64,000 nt of DNA from assembly GCF_023544445.1 (NCBI RefSeq), contig NZ_JALPVJ010000004.1, positions 372,001 to 436,000 of the forward strand, in the 5' to 3' direction. The notes under the pieces are model-generated. The model worked only from the letters and a program-made list of their open reading frames with translations. It did no database searches and was not told the origin of the DNA. Position numbers and translations under genes: made by a program. Below are positions 23,059 through 30,731 of this stretch, in pieces. This DNA is from Actinoplanes sp. M2I2. GTDB taxonomy: Bacteria > Actinomycetota > Actinomycetes > Mycobacteriales > Micromonosporaceae. The first letter of the stretch is position 1. The number at the start of each line of letters is the position of its first letter.

Positions 23059-24273
23059 TCACCACGTCCCGTCGTCGCGCACCCGCCGCGCCGGACCGTC
23101 CCCGGTGAGCAGCCCGGTCAGCGCCTCGTCGAGCGTGCTGCCGACAAACCACTCCCCGGCCTGGTCGAGCACGAAGACCCGCCCCAGCTCGTCGATCGCC
23201 ACCACCGCGTCGCCGCCCTCGATCCCGATCGGGAAGAGCGGCGCCCCGATGACCTCGGCCAGTTCGGCCAGCGTGGCCGCCGCATAGGCGCCCGGCACCG
23301 GGTCGAGCAACAGCAGGCGGATGGCCCGGCGCAGTCCCGGCCCGCGACGGGCGCACCGCACCCCCGGGAAATCGGCCACGGCGACGCGCGCCGCCTCGAA
23401 CGGCCGCAGACGTCCGCCGGAGGCCTCGACGGCACGCTCGATCGCCGCCTCACCGAGTGATCCCGTTCCCGGGCCGATCCACCCGCCGCCGGCCAGCGTC
23501 CGCGCCACCTCGTGCGGGAAGCGGCCGGCCACCGGCACACGCTCCGAGCCGTGCCTCCACTCGCTGGCGTAGGCCCGGTCCGACCACGGCAGCACCGCGA
23601 GGTCGACCAGCACGCCGATGCAGGTCTCGCACGGGCGGAACTCCTGGCCGCCCAGGGGGTCGCCCTGGTCCCGTACGAGGAAAGCCCGGAAATCGGCCTC
23701 GACCAGCCCGGCTCTCGCCTCGTCGAGCGTGATCTCCCCTCCCCGGGCGCGGGACGCCTCGTGCAGCGCGTCGGAGAGGGCGATCAACTCGGCGTGCCGC
23801 TCGGCGCCGCGCACCCGGGCCTGCGCGCCCAGCATCTCGAGGCGATCCACCACCAGCGGATGGTGGCCGATCCGCTGGTCACCCTTCGCACCCTGTGACC
23901 GGTACAGCCGATCACCCACGGTGAGATGCGCGACCGTCGTCGGCGTCGGCCGCCGCCGGGTCAGCCGAAGCAGCGAGACAGCCGGATCCACTGTGCCCGG
24001 CGGGGTGGGCCGTCGGTCCCGATAGATCGCGACGATCTCGTCGGTCGGGACCCCGGGCCAGGTGGAGATCACTCCGGTCTCGCGGTCGATGACCGTGCGG
24101 GCGCCGTCGCCGGGCACAGCCGGCACGGTGGCCGGCCGGCGCGTCCAGATCACATAGCCGAGGTCGAACTCGGCCAGCATCGGCTCACACCCGTATCCGC
24201 GCTGCTCGGACTCGTTGCGCGCCCACCGCGCGGCGATCTTCTCGGCCTCGGTCCGCGTGATCACCGTGTTCAT
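23059..24273 (-). CDS. YwqJ-type deaminase / SUKH-3 immunity domain protein
   Basis: 404 residues in three parts. Residues 1-95 resemble YrhB-type immunity domains ('TRTEAEKIAARWARNESEQ', 'TVIDRETGVISTWPG'). Residues 100-235 carry a zinc-deaminase signature, H160-A-E162 and P214-C215-x-x-C218, as in YwqJ-like deaminases of toxin systems. Residues 250-404 look like SUKH-3, a domain that neutralises contact-dependent toxins: 'HEVARTLAGGGWIGPG', 'ADFPGVRC', 'GEWFVGSTLDEALTGLL'. It is divergent from a WXG100/toxin operon with 98 bp of shared promoter region. Whether the deaminase domain is active, a toxin relic or a decoy cannot be seen. Start ATG 24273 follows AAAGGGG closely. Confidence 0.75.
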   Translation of the reverse strand: MNTVITRTEAEKIAARWARNESEQRGYGCEPMLAEFDLGYVIWTRRPATVPAVPGDGARTVIDRETGVISTWPGVPTDEIVAIYRDRRPTPPGTVDPAVSLLRLTRRRPTPTTVAHLTVGDRLYRSQGAKGDQRIGHHPLVVDRLEMLGAQARVRGAERHAELIALSDALHEASRARGGEITLDEARAGLVEADFRAFLVRDQGDPLGGQEFRPCETCIGVLVDLAVLPWSDRAYASEWRHGSERVPVAGRFPHEVARTLAGGGWIGPGTGSLGEAAIERAVEASGGRLRPFEAARVAVADFPGVRCARRGPGLRRAIRLLLLDPVPGAYAAATLAELAEVIGAPLFPIGIEGGDAVVAIDELGRVFVLDQAGEWFVGSTLDEALTGLLTGDGPARRVRDDGTW

Positions 24274-24371: not shown

Positions 24372-24797
24372 GTGGCTGTTACGACGAACCGCGACGCGAA
24401 TCGGGAACTGCGCGACCGTTTCGCGGAGGTGCACGAACGATATGCGCGTCTGCGGTCCGATTTGGATGATCTTCAACGCCGTCTCGAAGCTGTTCGCGTC
24501 ACCGTCGTCTCCACCGACGGACTCGTCCGCGTGACGGTCGGCCCCCGGGGCGAACTGATCGACTTGCGGTTGATTCGCCGGGCCACCCGGAACATGGACA
24601 GCGAATACGTCTCCCGCACGATCGTGTCGACTGTCCACACTGCCGCGCAGCGCGCGGCGGAGCGCGTTCAGTCTTTGCTGGGCGACTATCTGCCGGCCGA
24701 TTCGGGTGCGCTTCGCTATCTGCGCGATCACGATTTCGGTTCGCTGCTCGGACGGTCCGACGAGATCGTGCAGGACCTGGCCGGCCGCCATGAATGA
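24372..24797 (+). CDS. YbaB/EbfC-like protein
   Basis: 141 residues. A heptad-like helix ('RFAEVHERYARLRSDLDDLQRRLEAV' region, residues 14-40) is followed by the YbaB core, 'VRVTVGPRGELIDLRL', and a C-terminal helix. YbaB proteins are small dimeric nucleoid-associated proteins, but in actinobacteria divergent copies regularly sit before WXG100 and toxin genes, where they may act as chaperones or exported partners; that role is unproven. Start GTG at 24372. The next gene overlaps it by eight bases. Confidence 0.75.
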   Translation: MAVTTNRDANRELRDRFAEVHERYARLRSDLDDLQRRLEAVRVTVVSTDGLVRVTVGPRGELIDLRLIRRATRNMDSEYVSRTIVSTVHTAAQRAAERVQSLLGDYLPADSGALRYLRDHDFGSLLGRSDEIVQDLAGRHE

Positions 24798-25125
24798 CGC
24801 CCGGCTGTGGCTCGACGCCGAGGAGGCCCTCGCCGGCTCAAGCGCCCTGAGCGCGGCCGGCGAGGACCTGGGCGCGCGCCGCAACCGGGCCGGCGCCGAG
24901 ATCGCCGCGGCCAGTTCCGCGACGCCGTGGGGGCGGGACGAGTACGGCCAGTCCTTCGAGCGGCACTACCGGCCGTTCGAGCAGCAGGTTCTCGAGGCGT
25001 GGGAGCAGCTCTCGGCGTACCTGTCCGGACTCGGCGACGCGGCCGCGCAGTCGGTGCGTGACAACGTTCAAGCGGACGCCGACGCGGCGGAGCGCGTCCG
25101 CTCCACCTATCGGAGCCGGCCATGA
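24790..25125 (+). CDS. WXG100-like / ESX secretion-associated small protein
   Basis: 111 residues, almost entirely helical, with 'AAASSATPWGRDEYGQSFERHY' in the middle (residues 40-60) and long flanking helices, the size and fold expected for WXG100-like partners of type VII-exported toxins. The exact W-x-G is replaced by 'PWGRDEYG'. ATG 24790 is chosen because it begins the coding signal; it overlaps the YbaB-like stop by eight bases, and its own stop overlaps the toxin ATG (ATGA), so the three genes are translationally coupled. Confidence 0.7.
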   Translation: MNDARLWLDAEEALAGSSALSAAGEDLGARRNRAGAEIAAASSATPWGRDEYGQSFERHYRPFEQQVLEAWEQLSAYLSGLGDAAAQSVRDNVQADADAAERVRSTYRSRP

Positions 25126-28100
25126 GCGTGCTGCCCAGCCCCGTCCCACACCCCCTCGAGTTCAGCCCGTTCGACGTTCCGGCCTGGGCCTACGAGGCGC
25201 TCGAGTGGGTCGTCGGCTTCGACTGGCCGGCCGGCAACGAGGTCGCCACCTGGGACGTCGCCGACCGCTGGTATCTGCTGGCCACCTCTTTGGCCGAGCC
25301 CAACGAGGCCGCCCTGTCGGCGGCCCACCGGTTCCTCTCCGGTTACGGCGGCGCGGGCATCACCGCGGAGGGTTTCGAGGACGCGTGGCGTCTGGTCGCG
25401 GGTGACGAGAACGCCCCGCTGCACGACCTGCTGCGGGTGTCCGACGAGCTGGGCAAACTCGTCGAAGGCTGCGGCGCCGACATCGAGGCGGCCAAGCTCG
25501 AGGCCTGGATCGAGATCGGCATCTTCCTCATCGAGCTGGTCGGCATGGCCGTCACCGTCGCGCTCACCCTGGGAGCGGCGTCCCCGGTGGCCGGCGGCCT
25601 GATCGTCGCGACCCGGCTCGCCATCCAGCAGATCTTCCGCCGCCTCGTCGAGCAGCTCGGCACCAAGGCGCTCAAGCAGACCGCCGGCCGCGCGGTCAAG
25701 CAGGTGACCAGCCGGGAAGGACTGCGGAACCTGGGCCGGAAGGCGCTCGACGAGGGCTTCGACGAGGCGCGCGAGGAGATCGCCACCAACGGCGGCATCC
25801 AGCTCTACCAGCAGTCGACCGGGCGCTCGGACGGATTCGACTTCGAAGACCTGGGCCGGACGGCGCTGGCCGGTTTCGCCGGGGGCGTCGCGTCGAGCGG
25901 TGCCCAGATCGGATCGAACGGTCACGGCGGACTCCTGCGCGGCGCCGGCGGCGAGGTCATGGCCGAATTCGGGGCAGCCGCCACGTACGGGGAACTGCCC
26001 GATGCGACGAGTATCGCGAAATCGGCCAGTTCGGGCGCCGCCGGGTCGGCTCTCCAGGGCATGCCGTCGGCGATCGATATCGGTCAGCTGCCGCAACTCG
26101 ACGGAACCCTTCCAACGGTCGCGGTGGGTGGGTCTTCGGCTTCCGGAAATACGACGGTAGGCGTCGAACTGATAGGCGGACCGGCAGCCGACGGTGGGCT
26201 GGGCGCGAATGCCACCCCGTCCACAAACGCAGGTGAGGGTTCATCACTCTCCACCACTGCTCCCGGGGATCCCCCTCCGGCTCACGCTCAGCCGGCGCCG
26301 GTTCAAGACGCGGCGTCCACCGCGAGTTCGTCGACCGCTCCTGAGGCCTCTGCTTCCTCTTCTCCGGAGCCCTCCACTGCTGCGCAGCCCGCCACTGCTT
26401 TGCCGGAGTCCTCCTCTACGCAGCCCTCTTCCTCAGCCGACTCCCCGTCAGCGGGCACCGCCTCACCGACCGCGGCGTCTTCGTCATCCGCACCGCCGCC
26501 GTCTTCTCCATCCGTACCGCCGGCGCAGTCCGCGCCGCCTTCTCCATCCGCGCCGCTGGACGGGTCGAGCACCCTGGCGACGGCCGGCTTGGCTGATCCG
26601 CTCACCGCCGCCTCGGTCACGTCATCCGCCCCGGTCATCTCCACTCCCCTCCCGGCTTCTGGTGATTCACTGCCTGGCCCCGGGACGCCTGCGGCCGCCG
26701 CGTTCAACCCCGCCGCGTCCAACCCCGCCGCGTTCAACCCCGCCGCCGCCGTGCCCCGGCACGCAGCCACCAACGCGGCCGCCCGCCACCGGCCGGCACG
26801 AAGGCGGACGGACCTCAACCCGGGCGACGACTCCCGTACCCGACCGGTCGACGCCCCCGGCTCCACACCTCCAGGCTCCCGGCGCAGCTCACTCTCCGAT
26901 CTGGAGCGCATCGCCGACGCCCTGGGCCCGCGCCCCCTCCCGCGCCGGCCGGCCCGCCGATACTCCGACCCCGCCGTCCCCGACACCACCGTCGCCGCGT
27001 CCACCCACGTTCCCCGCCACAGCTCGCCGCCGTCCCCCCAACCGGAGGTCCGCGACGAGCGGGCGTACTTCGGCTACGCCGCGCACGCCCGGCAGACCCA
27101 CGAACAGAACCGGCGGGACGAATACGCCGCCTACCTGACGTCGATCGCCGAGGACAACCGCGCCAAGGTCGTCGACCTGAGCCGCCGAGCCGACGAAGCC
27201 GCCCGGGCCGGTTTCACGCTGCGCGAGGCGCAGTACCGCCACCAGGCCCGCGAGCTCAGCGAGATCGTCATCGAGCTGGACGACCAGGTCACCCAGGTTC
27301 GATCGGGCGCACTGGCCCCCGACCGCGTGGAAGTGGACCCGCCCGAGTGGGCCCGCATCAACCGCGACGTCGGCAACCTCGCCCCCGGCGGCATCCGCAC
27401 CGGCGACAACTCGGCCCTCGACGGCTTCGCCGGCCGCCCCCCGATCGACCGCACCCGCCGCTACAACGTGGTCGGCGGCCTCCGCCCGCCGTTGGCCGTC
27501 CACCAGATCGACGTCGAGAACGCCGTCCCCCGCGACCACGACGGCAACGTCTCGCGCCTGGCCGACCCCCGCGAAGGCACCTGGTTCGGCCTGGCCAACG
27601 ACGGCGGCCCGGCCGCCGACCCGACGCGAGGCCTGAACTGCGTGGACGGCGTGCTGGCCCTGTTCGACACGTACATCCACGGCCGCCCCCGCGTGTCCGC
27701 CCCCAGAACGTTCGACGTCTACGCCCAAGGCGACCCCGACCGCCCCCTGGGCGGCGAGCTGGAAGGAATCCACCGCATCCGCCTGGCCACCGGCGGCGAC
27801 TTCCAGAACGTCTGCCCCTACCTCGGTGAAGCCGACCCGTCCCAGTCCAGGCCGGTCATGGACCAGGCCGTGCAGAACCTGACCAACCACCTGCTCAACA
27901 CCGGCCACGGCGCGTACGCCTTCCTGGTGACCGACCTGGAGGGCGGCGGAAGCCACTCCTGGGCGGCGCTCAACCAGAACGGAACCGTCCTCTTCGTAGA
28001 CCCCCAGATAGGCCGGATCTCCGAACACACCCCCCTGTACCGCCACCACGGCGTCCCCACCCCCATCAACGTCGTCTCCCTGGAAGCCCTGGTAGTCGAC

Positions 28101-28982
28101 GCGTCCGGCACCCCAGCCCCCCTCCCACACCACGGCCCCGGCCAGTGGTCCGCCACTCCAACCGGTGTTGATGATGGCAATCCTCGGCCGACTCATCAGC
28201 CGGCTTTCGAATCGTTGGCGACCGATCAGCAGGAGGCTCTACGTGCTGCTACCGCAGAGTCGCACCGGGTGGCCTCCCGTGTTGCGAGTGACCTTCACGC
28301 GGTGACGCGCGCCGTTGACCACCCGGCTCGGCTTGTGGACGAGGAACATAGGGTCAAATCAATCGAGAGCCTGAGCCGTAAGTACCTGGAGGCCTTCGAA
28401 ACGGAGAACGTTGCTCTCGACGAGTTCGTCGGACGAGTGAAGGACCGCGTTCGGTTCTCCGTAGAAGTACCCGAAACCGCCTACGGAACCACCGTGAACC
28501 AAGTAATGGCAAGGCTTCACGAGCTTGGGTACCGAAGGACCGGCACGGCGAATTTCTGGTCAGATCACAGCCGCCACAACGGGCTCAACGTCTGGCTCAT
28601 CGATCCCGGCGGCTTCCGTATCGAGATCCAATTCCCCACACCCCTGTCTCGGGCGGTGGGACGAGAGACTCACCAGAGCTACGAGACTTTGCGCCTCGGC
28701 CGCAACCCCGCTTATGCGCGAGTCAACGCTTTCCTCGAAATCCTGGCGATCAACAAGCGGTTCGACATCTACGCCCATCAGCCGCCTGACCTGTATGTAG
28801 TTTCCGACACCAAGACGAAGACGAGCACCATGGCCGCGTGGTTCCGAGCAGAGCCTGGAACCCTGATCCAGTACAAAAAGGACCTTCATGCGCGCGGCAT
28901 ATCATTCGAGAGCGAGTTGCGACGGCACGGCCTCACCTTTGACGACGTACCCGGCCTCGAAGAGATGGGCCTGACCGGATGA
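25122..28982 (+). CDS. Polymorphic toxin: glutamine-deamidase plus RelA/SpoT-like domains
   Basis: 1286 residues. Residues 1-130 form a WXG-type export domain ('WEVVGFDWPAGNEV'-like region), then a hydrophobic helix pair at 128-175. Residues 350-610 are a Ser/Ala/Pro-rich linker with 'FNPAA' repeats, followed by a coiled segment to ~740. Residues ~795-1005 match the papain-like toxin glutamine deamidase: Cys840 in 'RGLNCVDGVLALFDT', His945 in 'GSHSWAAL', Asp960 in 'VLFVDPQIGR'. Residues ~1040-1286 look like a RelA/SpoT-type pyrophosphokinase: 'HRVKSIESLSRKY' (R1077, K1079), 'VKDRVRF' (D1108) and 'FRIEIQF' (E1168). The G-loop Tyr seems replaced. Cell target and export route are inferred. Confidence 0.8.
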   Translation: MSVLPSPVPHPLEFSPFDVPAWAYEALEWVVGFDWPAGNEVATWDVADRWYLLATSLAEPNEAALSAAHRFLSGYGGAGITAEGFEDAWRLVAGDENAPLHDLLRVSDELGKLVEGCGADIEAAKLEAWIEIGIFLIELVGMAVTVALTLGAASPVAGGLIVATRLAIQQIFRRLVEQLGTKALKQTAGRAVKQVTSREGLRNLGRKALDEGFDEAREEIATNGGIQLYQQSTGRSDGFDFEDLGRTALAGFAGGVASSGAQIGSNGHGGLLRGAGGEVMAEFGAAATYGELPDATSIAKSASSGAAGSALQGMPSAIDIGQLPQLDGTLPTVAVGGSSASGNTTVGVELIGGPAADGGLGANATPSTNAGEGSSLSTTAPGDPPPAHAQPAPVQDAASTASSSTAPEASASSSPEPSTAAQPATALPESSSTQPSSSADSPSAGTASPTAASSSSAPPPSSPSVPPAQSAPPSPSAPLDGSSTLATAGLADPLTAASVTSSAPVISTPLPASGDSLPGPGTPAAAAFNPAASNPAAFNPAAAVPRHAATNAAARHRPARRRTDLNPGDDSRTRPVDAPGSTPPGSRRSSLSDLERIADALGPRPLPRRPARRYSDPAVPDTTVAASTHVPRHSSPPSPQPEVRDERAYFGYAAHARQTHEQNRRDEYAAYLTSIAEDNRAKVVDLSRRADEAARAGFTLREAQYRHQARELSEIVIELDDQVTQVRSGALAPDRVEVDPPEWARINRDVGNLAPGGIRTGDNSALDGFAGRPPIDRTRRYNVVGGLRPPLAVHQIDVENAVPRDHDGNVSRLADPREGTWFGLANDGGPAADPTRGLNCVDGVLALFDTYIHGRPRVSAPRTFDVYAQGDPDRPLGGELEGIHRIRLATGGDFQNVCPYLGEADPSQSRPVMDQAVQNLTNHLLNTGHGAYAFLVTDLEGGGSHSWAALNQNGTVLFVDPQIGRISEHTPLYRHHGVPTPINVVSLEALVVDASGTPAPLPHHGPGQWSATPTGVDDGNPRPTHQPAFESLATDQQEALRAATAESHRVASRVASDLHAVTRAVDHPARLVDEEHRVKSIESLSRKYLEAFETENVALDEFVGRVKDRVRFSVEVPETAYGTTVNQVMARLHELGYRRTGTANFWSDHSRHNGLNVWLIDPGGFRIEIQFPTPLSRAVGRETHQSYETLRLGRNPAYARVNAFLEILAINKRFDIYAHQPPDLYVVSDTKTKTSTMAAWFRAEPGTLIQYKKDLHARGISFESELRRHGLTFDDVPGLEEMGLTG

Positions 28983-29308
28983 CAGAGAACTTCGCCTACA
29001 AAGCGATCTTGAGAAGTGATGACCGCTCGACCATTACGAGCTTGGTCGCATATCAGCCCGGCGATCAAGCACTTCGTGCCGTCCTCTGGAGTGTTCCGCG
29101 CCAACAGTGGATCTACGCGCCCAACATTGCCGCGCCCATCCTCTACGACGATCAGGAGCAAGACCGGGGCCGCCCAGTCGATCGCCGGACAGCCGAGCAG
29201 ATCTCTCGCGAGATTCTCCACACCGCGCTACCCACTGAGGCCGCCTTGTCGGAATTGTCCGATGAGGGCGAACGCAACGGCTGGGACTACGGGCCTCCTC
29301 GATCGTGA
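28979..29308 (+). CDS. Candidate cognate immunity protein
   Basis: 109 residues, acidic, soluble, with no family I recognise. It begins at an ATG that overlaps the toxin stop (ATGA), the usual position for an immunity gene, and shares the lower-GC, mixed codon use of the toxin's C-terminal domain. Visible segments are a beta-rich first half ('AYKAILRSDDRSTITSLVAYQPG', residues 6-28, then 'AVLWSVPRQQWIYAP') and a helical second half ('RTAEQISREILHTALPTEAAL'). Function is inferred from position; an RNA- or nucleotide-hydrolase type antitoxin is not evident. It ends four bases from the dnaB stop on the other strand. Confidence 0.65.
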   Translation: MTENFAYKAILRSDDRSTITSLVAYQPGDQALRAVLWSVPRQQWIYAPNIAAPILYDDQEQDRGRPVDRRTAEQISREILHTALPTEAALSELSDEGERNGWDYGPPRS

Positions 29309-29312
29309 GTTG

Positions 29313-30731
29313 TCAGACGATCGCCATGTCGACGAAGCGGGACAGGTGGAGCTGGGCCGCGACGGTCACCGTGTCGGTGGGGCCGTTTCGGTGCTTGGCG
29401 ATGATGAAGTCGGCCTCGCCCGCACGGGGCGACTCCTTGTCGTAGTAGTCGTCGCGGTGGAGCAGGATGACCACGTCGGCGTCCTGCTCGATCGAGCCGG
29501 ACTCACGCAGGTCGGACAGTTGCGGCCGCTTGTCGGTGCGCTGCTCGGGACCACGGTTCAGCTGGGACACGGCGATCACGGGGCACTCGATCTCCTTGGC
29601 CAGCAGCTTGAGACCACGGGACAGCTCGGAGACTTCCTGCTGGCGGCTCTCGGTCTTTTTCGGCGAGGACATCAGCTGGAGATAGTCGATCACCAGCAGC
29701 TTGAGGTTGTGCCGCTGCTTGAGCCGGCGCGCCTTGGCCCGGATCTCCATGAGGTTCATGTTGGGCGTGTCGTCGACGAAGATCGGAGCCTCGCTGATCT
29801 CGCCCATGCGCCGGGCCAGCTTGCTCCAGTCGTCGTCGGTGAGCTGGCCGGAACGCAGCACATGCAGGGGCACCCGGGCCTCGGCGGAGAGCAGACGCAT
29901 GACCATCTCGATCTTGCTCATTTCGAGCGAGAAGATCGCGCTGGCGCAATTGGCGCGGATGGCCGCGTTGCGGGCGAAGTCCATGCTGACCGTCGACTTA
30001 CCGAGACCGGGACGCCCGGCCACGATGATCAGCTGGCCGGCGTGCAGGCCGTTGAGCAGGCGGTCGAGGTCGGAGAAGCCGGTCGGCACGCCGGTCATCA
30101 TGCCGCCGTTGGCGCCGACCGCCTCGATCTCGTCGAGGGTGGGCTGCAGCATGTCACCCAGGGCGGCGAAGTCTTCGCTCACCCTTTTCTCGGTGACGTC
30201 GTAGATGGCCTGCTGGGCGAGGTCGACGATGTCGTCGACGTCACGCCCGCCGTTGCCGTTGGCCCCGTAGCCGAGCTGGACGATCTTGGTGCCGGCCTCG
30301 ACGAGACGGCGGAGGATGGCCCGCTCGCTGACGATCCGGGCGTAGTAGGAGGCGTTGGCCGCGGTCGGCACGCTCTCGATCAGGGTGTGCAGATAGGGCA
30401 CACCACCGATGCGTTGCAGATCACCCGAGTCGGCGAGGGCGGCGGCGACGGTCAGCGCGTCGGCCGGCTCCCCTCGCCCGTACAGATCGAGGACGACGTC
30501 GTAGATCGTGCCGTGTACCGGCCGGTAGAAGTCGTGCGTCTTGAGAATCTCGACGACGTCGGCGATCGCGTCCTTGGACAGCAGCATGCCGCCCAGGACG
30601 CCCTGCTCAGCCGCGACGTCCTGCGGAGGGGACTTGTCGAAGGAGCCGCCACCCGACGGCCCACCGCCCCCGCCACCCGACGGCCCGCCGCCGGGCTTGG
30701 CCGGTGGCCGTGTCTCATCGGTGATCGACAC
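29313..30731 (-). CDS. dnaB: Replicative DNA helicase DnaB
   Basis: 472 residues, the normal length, with no intein. A Gly/Pro-rich N-terminal tail of ~30 residues precedes the helical N-terminal domain ('AAEQGVLGGMLLSKDAIADVVE'-type start, residues 38-60). The RecA-like domain has Walker A 'GRPGLGKSTVSMDFARNAA', 'FSLEMSKIEMVMRLLSAEA', 'VDDTPNMNLMEIRAKARRLK', 'VIDYLQLM' and the arginine finger region 'EQRTDKRPQLSDLRESGSIE'. DnaB unwinds DNA at the replication fork. GTG at 30731 follows AGGAGGT by three bases. It is separated from the rplI cluster by a large insert gene on the other strand. Confidence 0.97.
   Translation of the reverse strand: MSITDETRPPAKPGGGPSGGGGGGPSGGGSFDKSPPQDVAAEQGVLGGMLLSKDAIADVVEILKTHDFYRPVHGTIYDVVLDLYGRGEPADALTVAAALADSGDLQRIGGVPYLHTLIESVPTAANASYYARIVSERAILRRLVEAGTKIVQLGYGANGNGGRDVDDIVDLAQQAIYDVTEKRVSEDFAALGDMLQPTLDEIEAVGANGGMMTGVPTGFSDLDRLLNGLHAGQLIIVAGRPGLGKSTVSMDFARNAAIRANCASAIFSLEMSKIEMVMRLLSAEARVPLHVLRSGQLTDDDWSKLARRMGEISEAPIFVDDTPNMNLMEIRAKARRLKQRHNLKLLVIDYLQLMSSPKKTESRQQEVSELSRGLKLLAKEIECPVIAVSQLNRGPEQRTDKRPQLSDLRESGSIEQDADVVILLHRDDYYDKESPRAGEADFIIAKHRNGPTDTVTVAAQLHLSRFVDMAIV

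What the first reader, a model, noticed from the sequence alone, without database searches (positions are those of the whole stretch)
25122..28982. Polymorphic toxin with two candidate warheads: glutamine deamidase and RelA/SpoT-like synthetase
One chain carries a papain-like deamidase domain with a full Cys840/His945/Asp960 set and, after it, a domain with RelA/SpoT synthetase hallmarks (R-x-K-S-x-x-S near 1077, D1108, E-I-Q at 1168). Stand-alone toxic small alarmone synthetases and the type VI effector Tas1 show that such folds can poison cells by making (p)ppApp or by modifying tRNA. I know of none joined to a WXG-type export module and a deamidase. Whether both domains act, or the deamidase is a processing domain for the tip, is open.
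Basis: partly seen in the sequence, partly recalled or inferred. Interest (0 to 1): 0.78.

Follow-up and report, generated by a model that had tools for sequence, protein, structure and literature searches.

The report
Secreted toxin with alarmone-synthetase tip
A bacterium related to Actinoplanes encodes a large toxin, likely exported by a type VII secretion system, whose C-terminal RelA/SpoT-like domain is likely the part that poisons rival bacteria and is likely blocked by the small protein encoded right after it; in some related bacteria the counterparts of that small gene lie inside the toxin's reading frame, in another frame.

The parts
23059..24273 (-). divergent gene: YwqJ-like deaminase domain plus SUKH-3 immunity domain (404 aa)
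   Evidence: Pfam PF14431 6.5e-18 and PF14433 3.5e-29; homologue in 77 of 81 loci, the other four being cut off inside the toxin by the contig end
24372..24797 (+). YbaB/EbfC-like protein, first gene of the toxin operon
   Evidence: PF02575 3.2e-13; in the same 77 of 81 loci
24790..25125 (+). small protein (about 111 aa from ATG 24790), likely WXG/ESX-type partner; overlaps both neighbours
   Evidence: no Pfam hit (on the longer ORF 24706-25125); homologue in the same 77 of 81 loci; WXG likeness is my reading of the sequence
25122..28982 (+). toxin gene, 1286 aa
25179..25613 (+). WXG100_2 domain, residues 20-164, export module
   Evidence: PF25547 5.1e-17
26112..27071 (+). Ser/Pro/Ala-rich linker, about residues 331-650
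   Evidence: sequence
27417..28136 (+). papain-like domain (PF15644 Gln_amidase, which I equate with Tox-PL1), residues 766-1005; C840 at 27639, H945 at 27954, D960 at 27999
   Evidence: PF15644; C/H/D in 146/146/145 of 146 copies
28197..28979 (+). SYNTH (RelA/SpoT-fold) tip, residues 1026-1286; D1108 at 28443, R1111 at 28452, N1156 at 28587, E1168 at 28623, Q1170 at 28629
   Evidence: PDB 8vx3 by sequence and fold; residues; lower GC3 than the papain-like domain
28979..29308 (+). candidate immunity gene, 109 aa, ATGA overlap with the toxin stop
   Evidence: family present in 35 of 35 SYNTH-tipped loci, 2 of 46 others; confident model, no PDB fold match
29313..30731 (-). dnaB replicative helicase gene, convergent neighbour (name recalled from the protein sequence, not searched)
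   Evidence: homologue downstream of the toxin in 24 of 81 loci, this one included

Best explanation
The gene at 25122-28982 joins a WXG100-like domain, a papain-like domain and a domain that matches RelA/SpoT-fold alarmone synthetases, and the last of these is likely the exchangeable antibacterial warhead: predicted to move pyrophosphate from ATP onto nucleotides inside a neighbouring cell, likely neutralised by the 109-residue protein encoded just after it, while the papain-like domain likely belongs to the fixed delivery body and would process the chain rather than poison. Shown here: the domains and their conserved catalytic residues; the SYNTH-like fold of the predicted model; exchange of the synthetase behind unchanged bodies; the tight link of the immunity family with this tip and not with the papain-like domain; the recurrent gene order YbaB-like, small WXG-like protein, toxin; EccC and EccD genes in the same genome. 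Inferred: type VII export, entry into a rival cell, the product (ppGpp, ppApp or pyrophosphorylated RNA), inhibition by binding, and what the papain-like domain cuts or deamidates.
For: Fold and sequence match to SaEAS, an enzyme with measured (p)ppGpp/(p)ppApp synthesis (PMC12691689). The crystallised SaEAS is the inactive D121A mutant, and its Ala falls on our D1108; SaEAS R124, N169, E182, Q184 fall on R1111, N1156, E1168, Q1170. Tip swap: P0064 and P0065 are 100% identical over the first 330 residues and over the papain-like domain but 42% over SYNTH; in 9 of 9 pairs that I picked the papain-like domain is more alike than SYNTH. Papain-like GC3 exceeds SYNTH GC3 in 34 of 35 loci; window 0.93 against 0.72, immunity gene 0.71. 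Immunity family: 35 of 35 SYNTH-tipped loci, 2 of 46 others (with the single window protein as query 34 of 35 and 1 of 46). Bodies that end with the papain-like domain leave 4 bp (L024) or a 4-bp overlap (L029) before dnaB, so no immunity gene there. T7SS: EccC 878.9 bits, EccD 198 bits, both over cut-off. AaEAS, an LXG-type relative, makes (p)ppGpp and is followed by a small ORF that its authors read as a likely immunity gene (PMC12691689 section 10).
Against: No activity, export or neutralisation was measured. SaEAS K154 (ATP binding) falls on G1141, and a Tyr of SaEAS in the acceptor loop (role recalled) on H1152, so acceptor choice may differ. The papain-like triad is intact even in proteins that carry no tip after it, which plain tip release does not explain. 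GC3 is also low in the body's own linker (0.60-0.72 in residues 301-480) and in the YbaB-like gene (0.74), so the GC3 drop alone does not prove an imported cassette. The profile behind the 35-of-35 count was built from hits in these loci, and the loci share ancestry. The papain-like domain could not be modelled.
Confidence: 0.66

Rival explanations
1. Both enzymes poison: the papain-like domain is a second, independent warhead (Gln deamidase or protease) that acts in the target beside the synthetase.
For: C/H/D conserved in 146/146/145 of 146 copies, including proteins where it is the last domain (14 of 123 proteins with tails under 80 aa; 10 of 81 loci). Zhang et al. 2012 read C-terminal Tox-PL1 as a toxin and internal Tox-PL1 as an auto-processing peptidase.
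Against: It stays constant while tips are swapped. Of the 10 loci where it is C-terminal, five (L024, L029, L039, L042, L046) leave under 200 bp before the next widely conserved gene, so hardly room for an immunity gene; four (L041, L049, L068, L075) leave more or were not resolved; one (L058) has a weak immunity homologue. A target absent from the producer could explain this.
Confidence: 0.25
2. The synthetase tip pyrophosphorylates tRNA or other RNA rather than free nucleotides, as some toxSAS enzymes do.
Confidence: 0.2
3. The synthetase acts outside cells or on the producer as a signal, like Sec-exported SaEAS, not as an antibacterial toxin.
For: SaEAS is a secreted relative without an immunity gene that does not harm its producer.
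Against: Here an immunity-like family accompanies every SYNTH-tipped locus examined (35 of 35) and the tip varies more than the body, which fits conflict.
Confidence: 0.08

Closest known systems
Exported alarmone synthetases (EAS): SaEAS (PDB 8vx3) and the T7SS-linked AaEAS (PMC12691689)
   Same: SYNTH fold, D/R/N/E/Q active-site residues, export route, T7SS link and small ORF downstream (AaEAS)
   Different: SaEAS is Sec-exported and lacks an immunity gene; AaEAS has an LXG domain. The words deamidase and papain do not occur in that paper's main text. K154 and the acceptor-loop Tyr are not kept here.
RelA/SpoT tips of ESX/T7SS polymorphic toxins (Micau_0989, PMC3482391)
   Same: ESX/T7SS export and RelA/SpoT-fold toxin domain in Micromonosporaceae
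   Different: 22 of 120 relatives carry a tip that reaches Pfam RelA_SpoT; the tip here does not and has its own immunity family. I did not compare with Micau_0989 itself.
Tox-PL1 (which I equate with Pfam Gln_amidase PF15644)
   Same: NC-H-DxQ signature (N839-C840, H945, D960-x-Q962), WXG toxins of actinobacteria, internal position
   Different: no functional difference could be tested; its internal role is predicted in the 2012 paper
Tas1/Apk1 (T6SS) and Apk2 (MuF prophage)
   Same: toxic SYNTH domain with a cognate immunity protein; the tip also hits a phage head-morphogenesis family, phrog_7625, E 2.6e-9
XopAD/skwp type III effector C-terminus
   Same: best NCBIfam match of the tip (E 2.3e-20, residues 1026-1190)
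   Different: plant-directed injected effector; only a part of that model is matched (71.6 bits, cut-off 2000); named only, not fetched

Membership tests
Exported alarmone synthetase (EAS) | SYNTH fold | tested here: met
Exported alarmone synthetase (EAS) | active-site residues cited for SaEAS (D121, R124, N169, E182, Q184, K154) | tested here: inconclusive
   five of six align with the same residue; K154 falls on G1141
Exported alarmone synthetase (EAS) | export-associated N-terminal domain | tested here: met
   WXG100_2, E 5.1e-17
Exported alarmone synthetase (EAS) | makes (p)ppGpp or (p)ppApp | not testable with these tools
   needs nucleotide chromatography
Type VII polymorphic toxin | constant N-terminal body, exchangeable C-terminal tip | tested here: met
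   P0064/P0065: 100/100/42% identity for N, papain-like, SYNTH
Type VII polymorphic toxin | cognate immunity gene beside the tip | tested here: inconclusive
   genetic link 35 of 35 against 2 of 46; neutralisation untested
Type VII polymorphic toxin | T7SS machinery in the genome | tested here: met
   EccC and EccD above curated cut-offs, about 325 kb away on the same contig
Tox-PL1 / Gln_amidase PF15644 | profile score above cut-off and NC-H-DxQ signature | tested here: met
   83.2 bits against 24.1; N839, C840, H945, Q962 in 146 of 146, D960 in 145
Tox-PL1 / Gln_amidase PF15644 | glutamine deamidase activity | not testable with these tools
   name only; could equally be a peptidase
Pfam RelA_SpoT PF04607 | profile match | tested here: not met
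   no hit up to E 1 for the whole protein or up to E 10 for the tip (HMMER's filters drop most matches above 0.1)
Toxic SAS toxin-antitoxin module (toxSAS) | partner gene product neutralises the synthetase | not testable with these tools
   gene order fits; neutralisation untested; here the toxin is a multidomain protein with an export module

The most novel reading that the evidence does not exclude
The window's toxin-immunity pair is the simplest member of a family in which toxin and antidote come to share the same DNA: in six Micromonosporaceae genera the immunity gene is overprinted, in the +1 frame and with its own start, inside one continuous toxin gene, and SYNTH tip plus overprinted antidote is repeated up to several times, so that one giant toxin gene carries a hidden array of antidotes.
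Probability: 0.75. Interest if true: 0.85.

Novelty: new variant of a known kind. Interest (0 to 1): 0.62.

Why it matters
For the window gene: comparative evidence separates the likely warhead from the delivery body of a WXG toxin, and points to an immunity family with no Pfam and no PDB fold match against RelA/SpoT-type toxins. For the family: fully out-of-frame overlap of toxin and immunity genes, repeated in arrays, would be an unusual case of dual coding that ties antidote to toxin so that neither can easily be lost alone.

Tried and rejected
Pfam, PADLOC and PHROGs gave nothing convincing for the immunity protein (best of 50 members 9.8e-4 to Apyrase, in 2 of 50, taken as chance). Chance motif match as the explanation of the C-terminal domain was rejected. 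A PDB search with the papain-like alignment A2 gave one match below E 0.07, SaEAS, through the attached tips. A PE-family search of the genome found nothing. The immunity model has no fold match in the PDB search, which does not show that the fold is new. A sequencing artefact for the embedded immunity genes was rejected: they recur in several genera, one-contig genomes included. Chance openness was tested by random synonymous recoding. The nine 'embedded' copies are open by definition, so that comparison (9 of 9 against 2 of 29 non-embedded copies) is only a base rate; the test is. Against the overprinting reading: the 31 regions were picked from the table, which shows the open-frame length, so the choice was not blind; two immunity hits lie in the SAME frame as the toxin (L125, L126); two regions (L122, L123) have tips but no immunity hit; 7 of 43 neighbouring tip pairs lie in different ORFs, in L124-L126; the loci within a genus are related, so counts are not independent. 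Two SYNTH-less loci (L058, L070) have weak immunity homologues (38-39 bits). Literature searches for overprinted or out-of-frame immunity genes (1, 0, 7, 0 and 10 papers; listings and abstract starts seen; PMC3482391 passages) showed no such report; subscription papers are not held, so this is weak evidence of absence. Searches were the other paper searches.
Full report
WHAT IS THERE. The ORF 25122-28982 on the + strand encodes 1286 residues. Pfam finds WXG100_2 (20-164) and Gln_amidase PF15644 (839-964). The last 261 residues match no Pfam RelA_SpoT profile but match the crystallised exported alarmone synthetase of Streptomyces albidoflavus, PDB 8vx3, by sequence (E 2.3e-7 with the whole protein; 3e-8 with the tip alone), part of the XopAD/skwp model (E 2.3e-20, residues 1026-1190, far below that model's full-length cut-off) and a phage head-morphogenesis family (phrog_7625, E 2.6e-9). 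The nearest relatives are Actinoplanes/Paractinoplanes proteins.

THE PAPAIN-LIKE DOMAIN. Cys840 and His945 are in 146 of 146 copies and Asp960 in 145. The N-C, H, D-x-Q pattern is that of Tox-PL1 in Zhang et al. 2012, who read it as a toxin when C-terminal and as an auto-processing peptidase when internal (passages of PMC3482391); that Tox-PL1 is PF15644 is my equation. Of the 123 proteins listed (one search matched 527 and lists 120), 48 have one to three SYNTH domains after it; the other 75 have other tails, among them a second copy of itself, a Pfam RelA_SpoT tip or a YwqJ deaminase, or almost nothing.

WHICH ONE IS THE WARHEAD. Four lines point to the synthetase. First, tip exchange: P0064 and P0065 are identical over 330 N-terminal residues and over the papain-like domain but 42% identical over SYNTH; P0016 and P0054 are 95% and 41% identical over the two domains; in 9 of 9 pairs that I picked the papain-like domain is the more alike. 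Second, composition: third-position GC in the window is 0.90 in the N-terminal body, 0.93 in the papain-like domain, 0.72 in SYNTH and 0.71 in the next gene, while dnaB beside it has 0.91; the papain-like domain exceeds SYNTH in 34 of 35 loci. Tip and following gene thus look like one cassette; but GC3 also falls to 0.60-0.72 in the body's linker and is 0.74 in the YbaB-like gene, so this line is weak alone. Third, immunity: the family of the 109-residue protein at 28979-29308 is present in 35 of 35 loci with a SYNTH tip and in 2 of 46 without, the two being weak hits (81 loci: L001 and the best 80 of the 121 relatives found). With the window protein alone as query it is 34 of 35 and 1 of 46. 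The profile was built from these loci and the genomes are related, so the numbers are not independent. Fourth, bodies that end with the papain-like domain: 10 of 81 loci have under 80 residues after it. Beside dnaB, L024 leaves 4 bp and L029 a 4-bp overlap, so no immunity gene; L039, L042 and L046 leave under 200 bp before the next widely conserved gene; L041, L049, L068 and L075 leave more or were not resolved; L058 has a weak immunity homologue. The triad stays intact in such proteins, which argues for a function of its own that does not endanger the producer; release or maturation of the chain is my preferred reading, a second effector is the rival.

THE LOCUS. In 77 of 81 loci (the other four are cut off inside the toxin) the toxin is preceded by a YbaB-like gene and a small WXG-like gene, with a divergent YwqJ-deaminase/SUKH-3 gene upstream. 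In the window the four genes overlap end to start (24372-24797, 24790-25125, 25122-28982, 28979-29308). A dnaB homologue lies downstream in 24 of 81 loci. The genome holds EccC (878.9 bits) and EccD (198 bits), both over their curated cut-offs, and three PF04607 RelA_SpoT matches elsewhere.

OVERPRINTED IMMUNITY GENES IN RELATIVES. While checking the immunity link I found that in seven of the 81 loci the immunity homologue lies inside the toxin ORF, in the +1 frame, behind a SYNTH domain and before a further tip in the toxin frame: RelA_SpoT-like in L010 and L078, nuclease-like in L013, L014, L016 and L022, YwqJ-like in L033 (tip names are my reading of the sequences). SYNTH domains occur in 91 of 250 genomes of the family. 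I fetched 31 regions: the 26 genomes that in my reading have two or more SYNTH hits close together on a contig, plus five with large ORFs; 20 first, 11 of another genus (g17) later as a held-out set. In the first set 46 of 48 immunity homologues are in the +1 frame and two are in the toxin's own frame; in the held-out set 34 of 34 are in the +1 frame. The frame of the preceding tip is open through all 80 out-of-frame copies, against 22.6 of 46 and 12.0 of 34 expected from synonymous recoding; among 29 non-embedded immunity homologues 2 are open in the corresponding frame. L119 has four immunity genes in a row between two SYNTH domains, and L132 five immunity genes with four SYNTH domains, each in one open toxin frame. 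The genomes with embedded copies among the 31 bear six genus labels (g1, g4, g17, g21, g31, g34). Inside these stretches GC by immunity codon position is 0.65/0.49/0.87 (first set) and 0.64/0.43/0.94 (held-out set), like the 0.70/0.45/0.87 of 74 SYNTH domains in their own frame, so the immunity frame has the signature of real coding (named loci). Eighty of 82 copies have a start codon near the expected N-terminus (69 ATG), and 35 of those 80 have five of six Shine-Dalgarno matches against 4.5% of random positions. Substitutions between 16 close pairs fall 167/158/259 on immunity codon positions 1/2/3, a mild third-position excess, as would be expected if both frames are constrained. Neighbouring SYNTH domains share one ORF in 36 of 43 pairs; the seven exceptions are in L124-L126. 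L122 and L123 have tips but no immunity hit. Between the window's 4-base overlap and full embedding there are intermediates: L015 and L069 (the toxin ORF covers 89 nt of the immunity domain) and L035 (278 nt). I conclude that toxin and antidote likely share DNA in these relatives; that both are made is inferred.

PRIOR WORK AND NOVELTY. RelA/SpoT tips on ESX/T7SS toxins and internal Tox-PL1 were described in 2012 (PMC3482391, section 16 and passages), and T7SS-linked exported alarmone synthetases with one biochemically tested example, AaEAS, in 2025 (PMC12691689, outline, sections 5, 9, 10 and passages). Of PMC12226406 (Apk2) I saw the outline and abstract. The window gene is thus a variant of a known kind, with a tip outside Pfam RelA_SpoT and an immunity family without a Pfam entry. 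The overprinted arrays I did not find in print in the searches.

Noticed in passing
L010, L013, L014, L016, L022, L033, L078 and L112-L121, L124-L142: Homologues of the window's immunity gene lie inside the toxin's open frame in the +1 frame (80 of 82 copies in 31 regions), 80 of 82 with a start codon near the expected N-terminus; up to four in a row (L119).
   Followed up: yes
L125:4632-4913 and L126:4265-4480: Two immunity homologues are in the same frame as the toxin, as if fused to it.
   Followed up: no
window 23059-24273 (-): A YwqJ-deaminase plus SUKH-3 immunity fusion is encoded divergently beside the toxin in 77 of 81 loci (the other four are cut off); a deaminase domain fused to an immunity domain, always kept, is unexplained.
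   Followed up: partly
window 24372-24797 (+): A YbaB/EbfC-like protein heads the toxin operon in the same 77 loci; why a nucleoid-type fold accompanies a WXG toxin is unknown.
   Followed up: no
window 28979-29308 (+): The immunity protein has a confident model without a convincing PDB fold match.
   Followed up: yes
G483:C82 and G095:C48: Open frames of 20,955 aa with PF15644 domains and 10,612 aa with two SYNTH domains.
   Followed up: no
window 29313-30731 and 24 of 81 loci: The toxin locus sits convergently beside dnaB in Actinoplanes-type genomes, with the last stop codon within a few bases of the dnaB stop in several.
   Followed up: partly
L058:8126-8368 and L070:9625-9906: Weak immunity homologues beside toxins without a detected SYNTH tip, perhaps orphan immunity genes.
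   Followed up: no
window residues 301-480 of the toxin and 24372-24797: GC3 is also low in the toxin's linker (0.60-0.72) and the YbaB-like gene (0.74).
   Followed up: no
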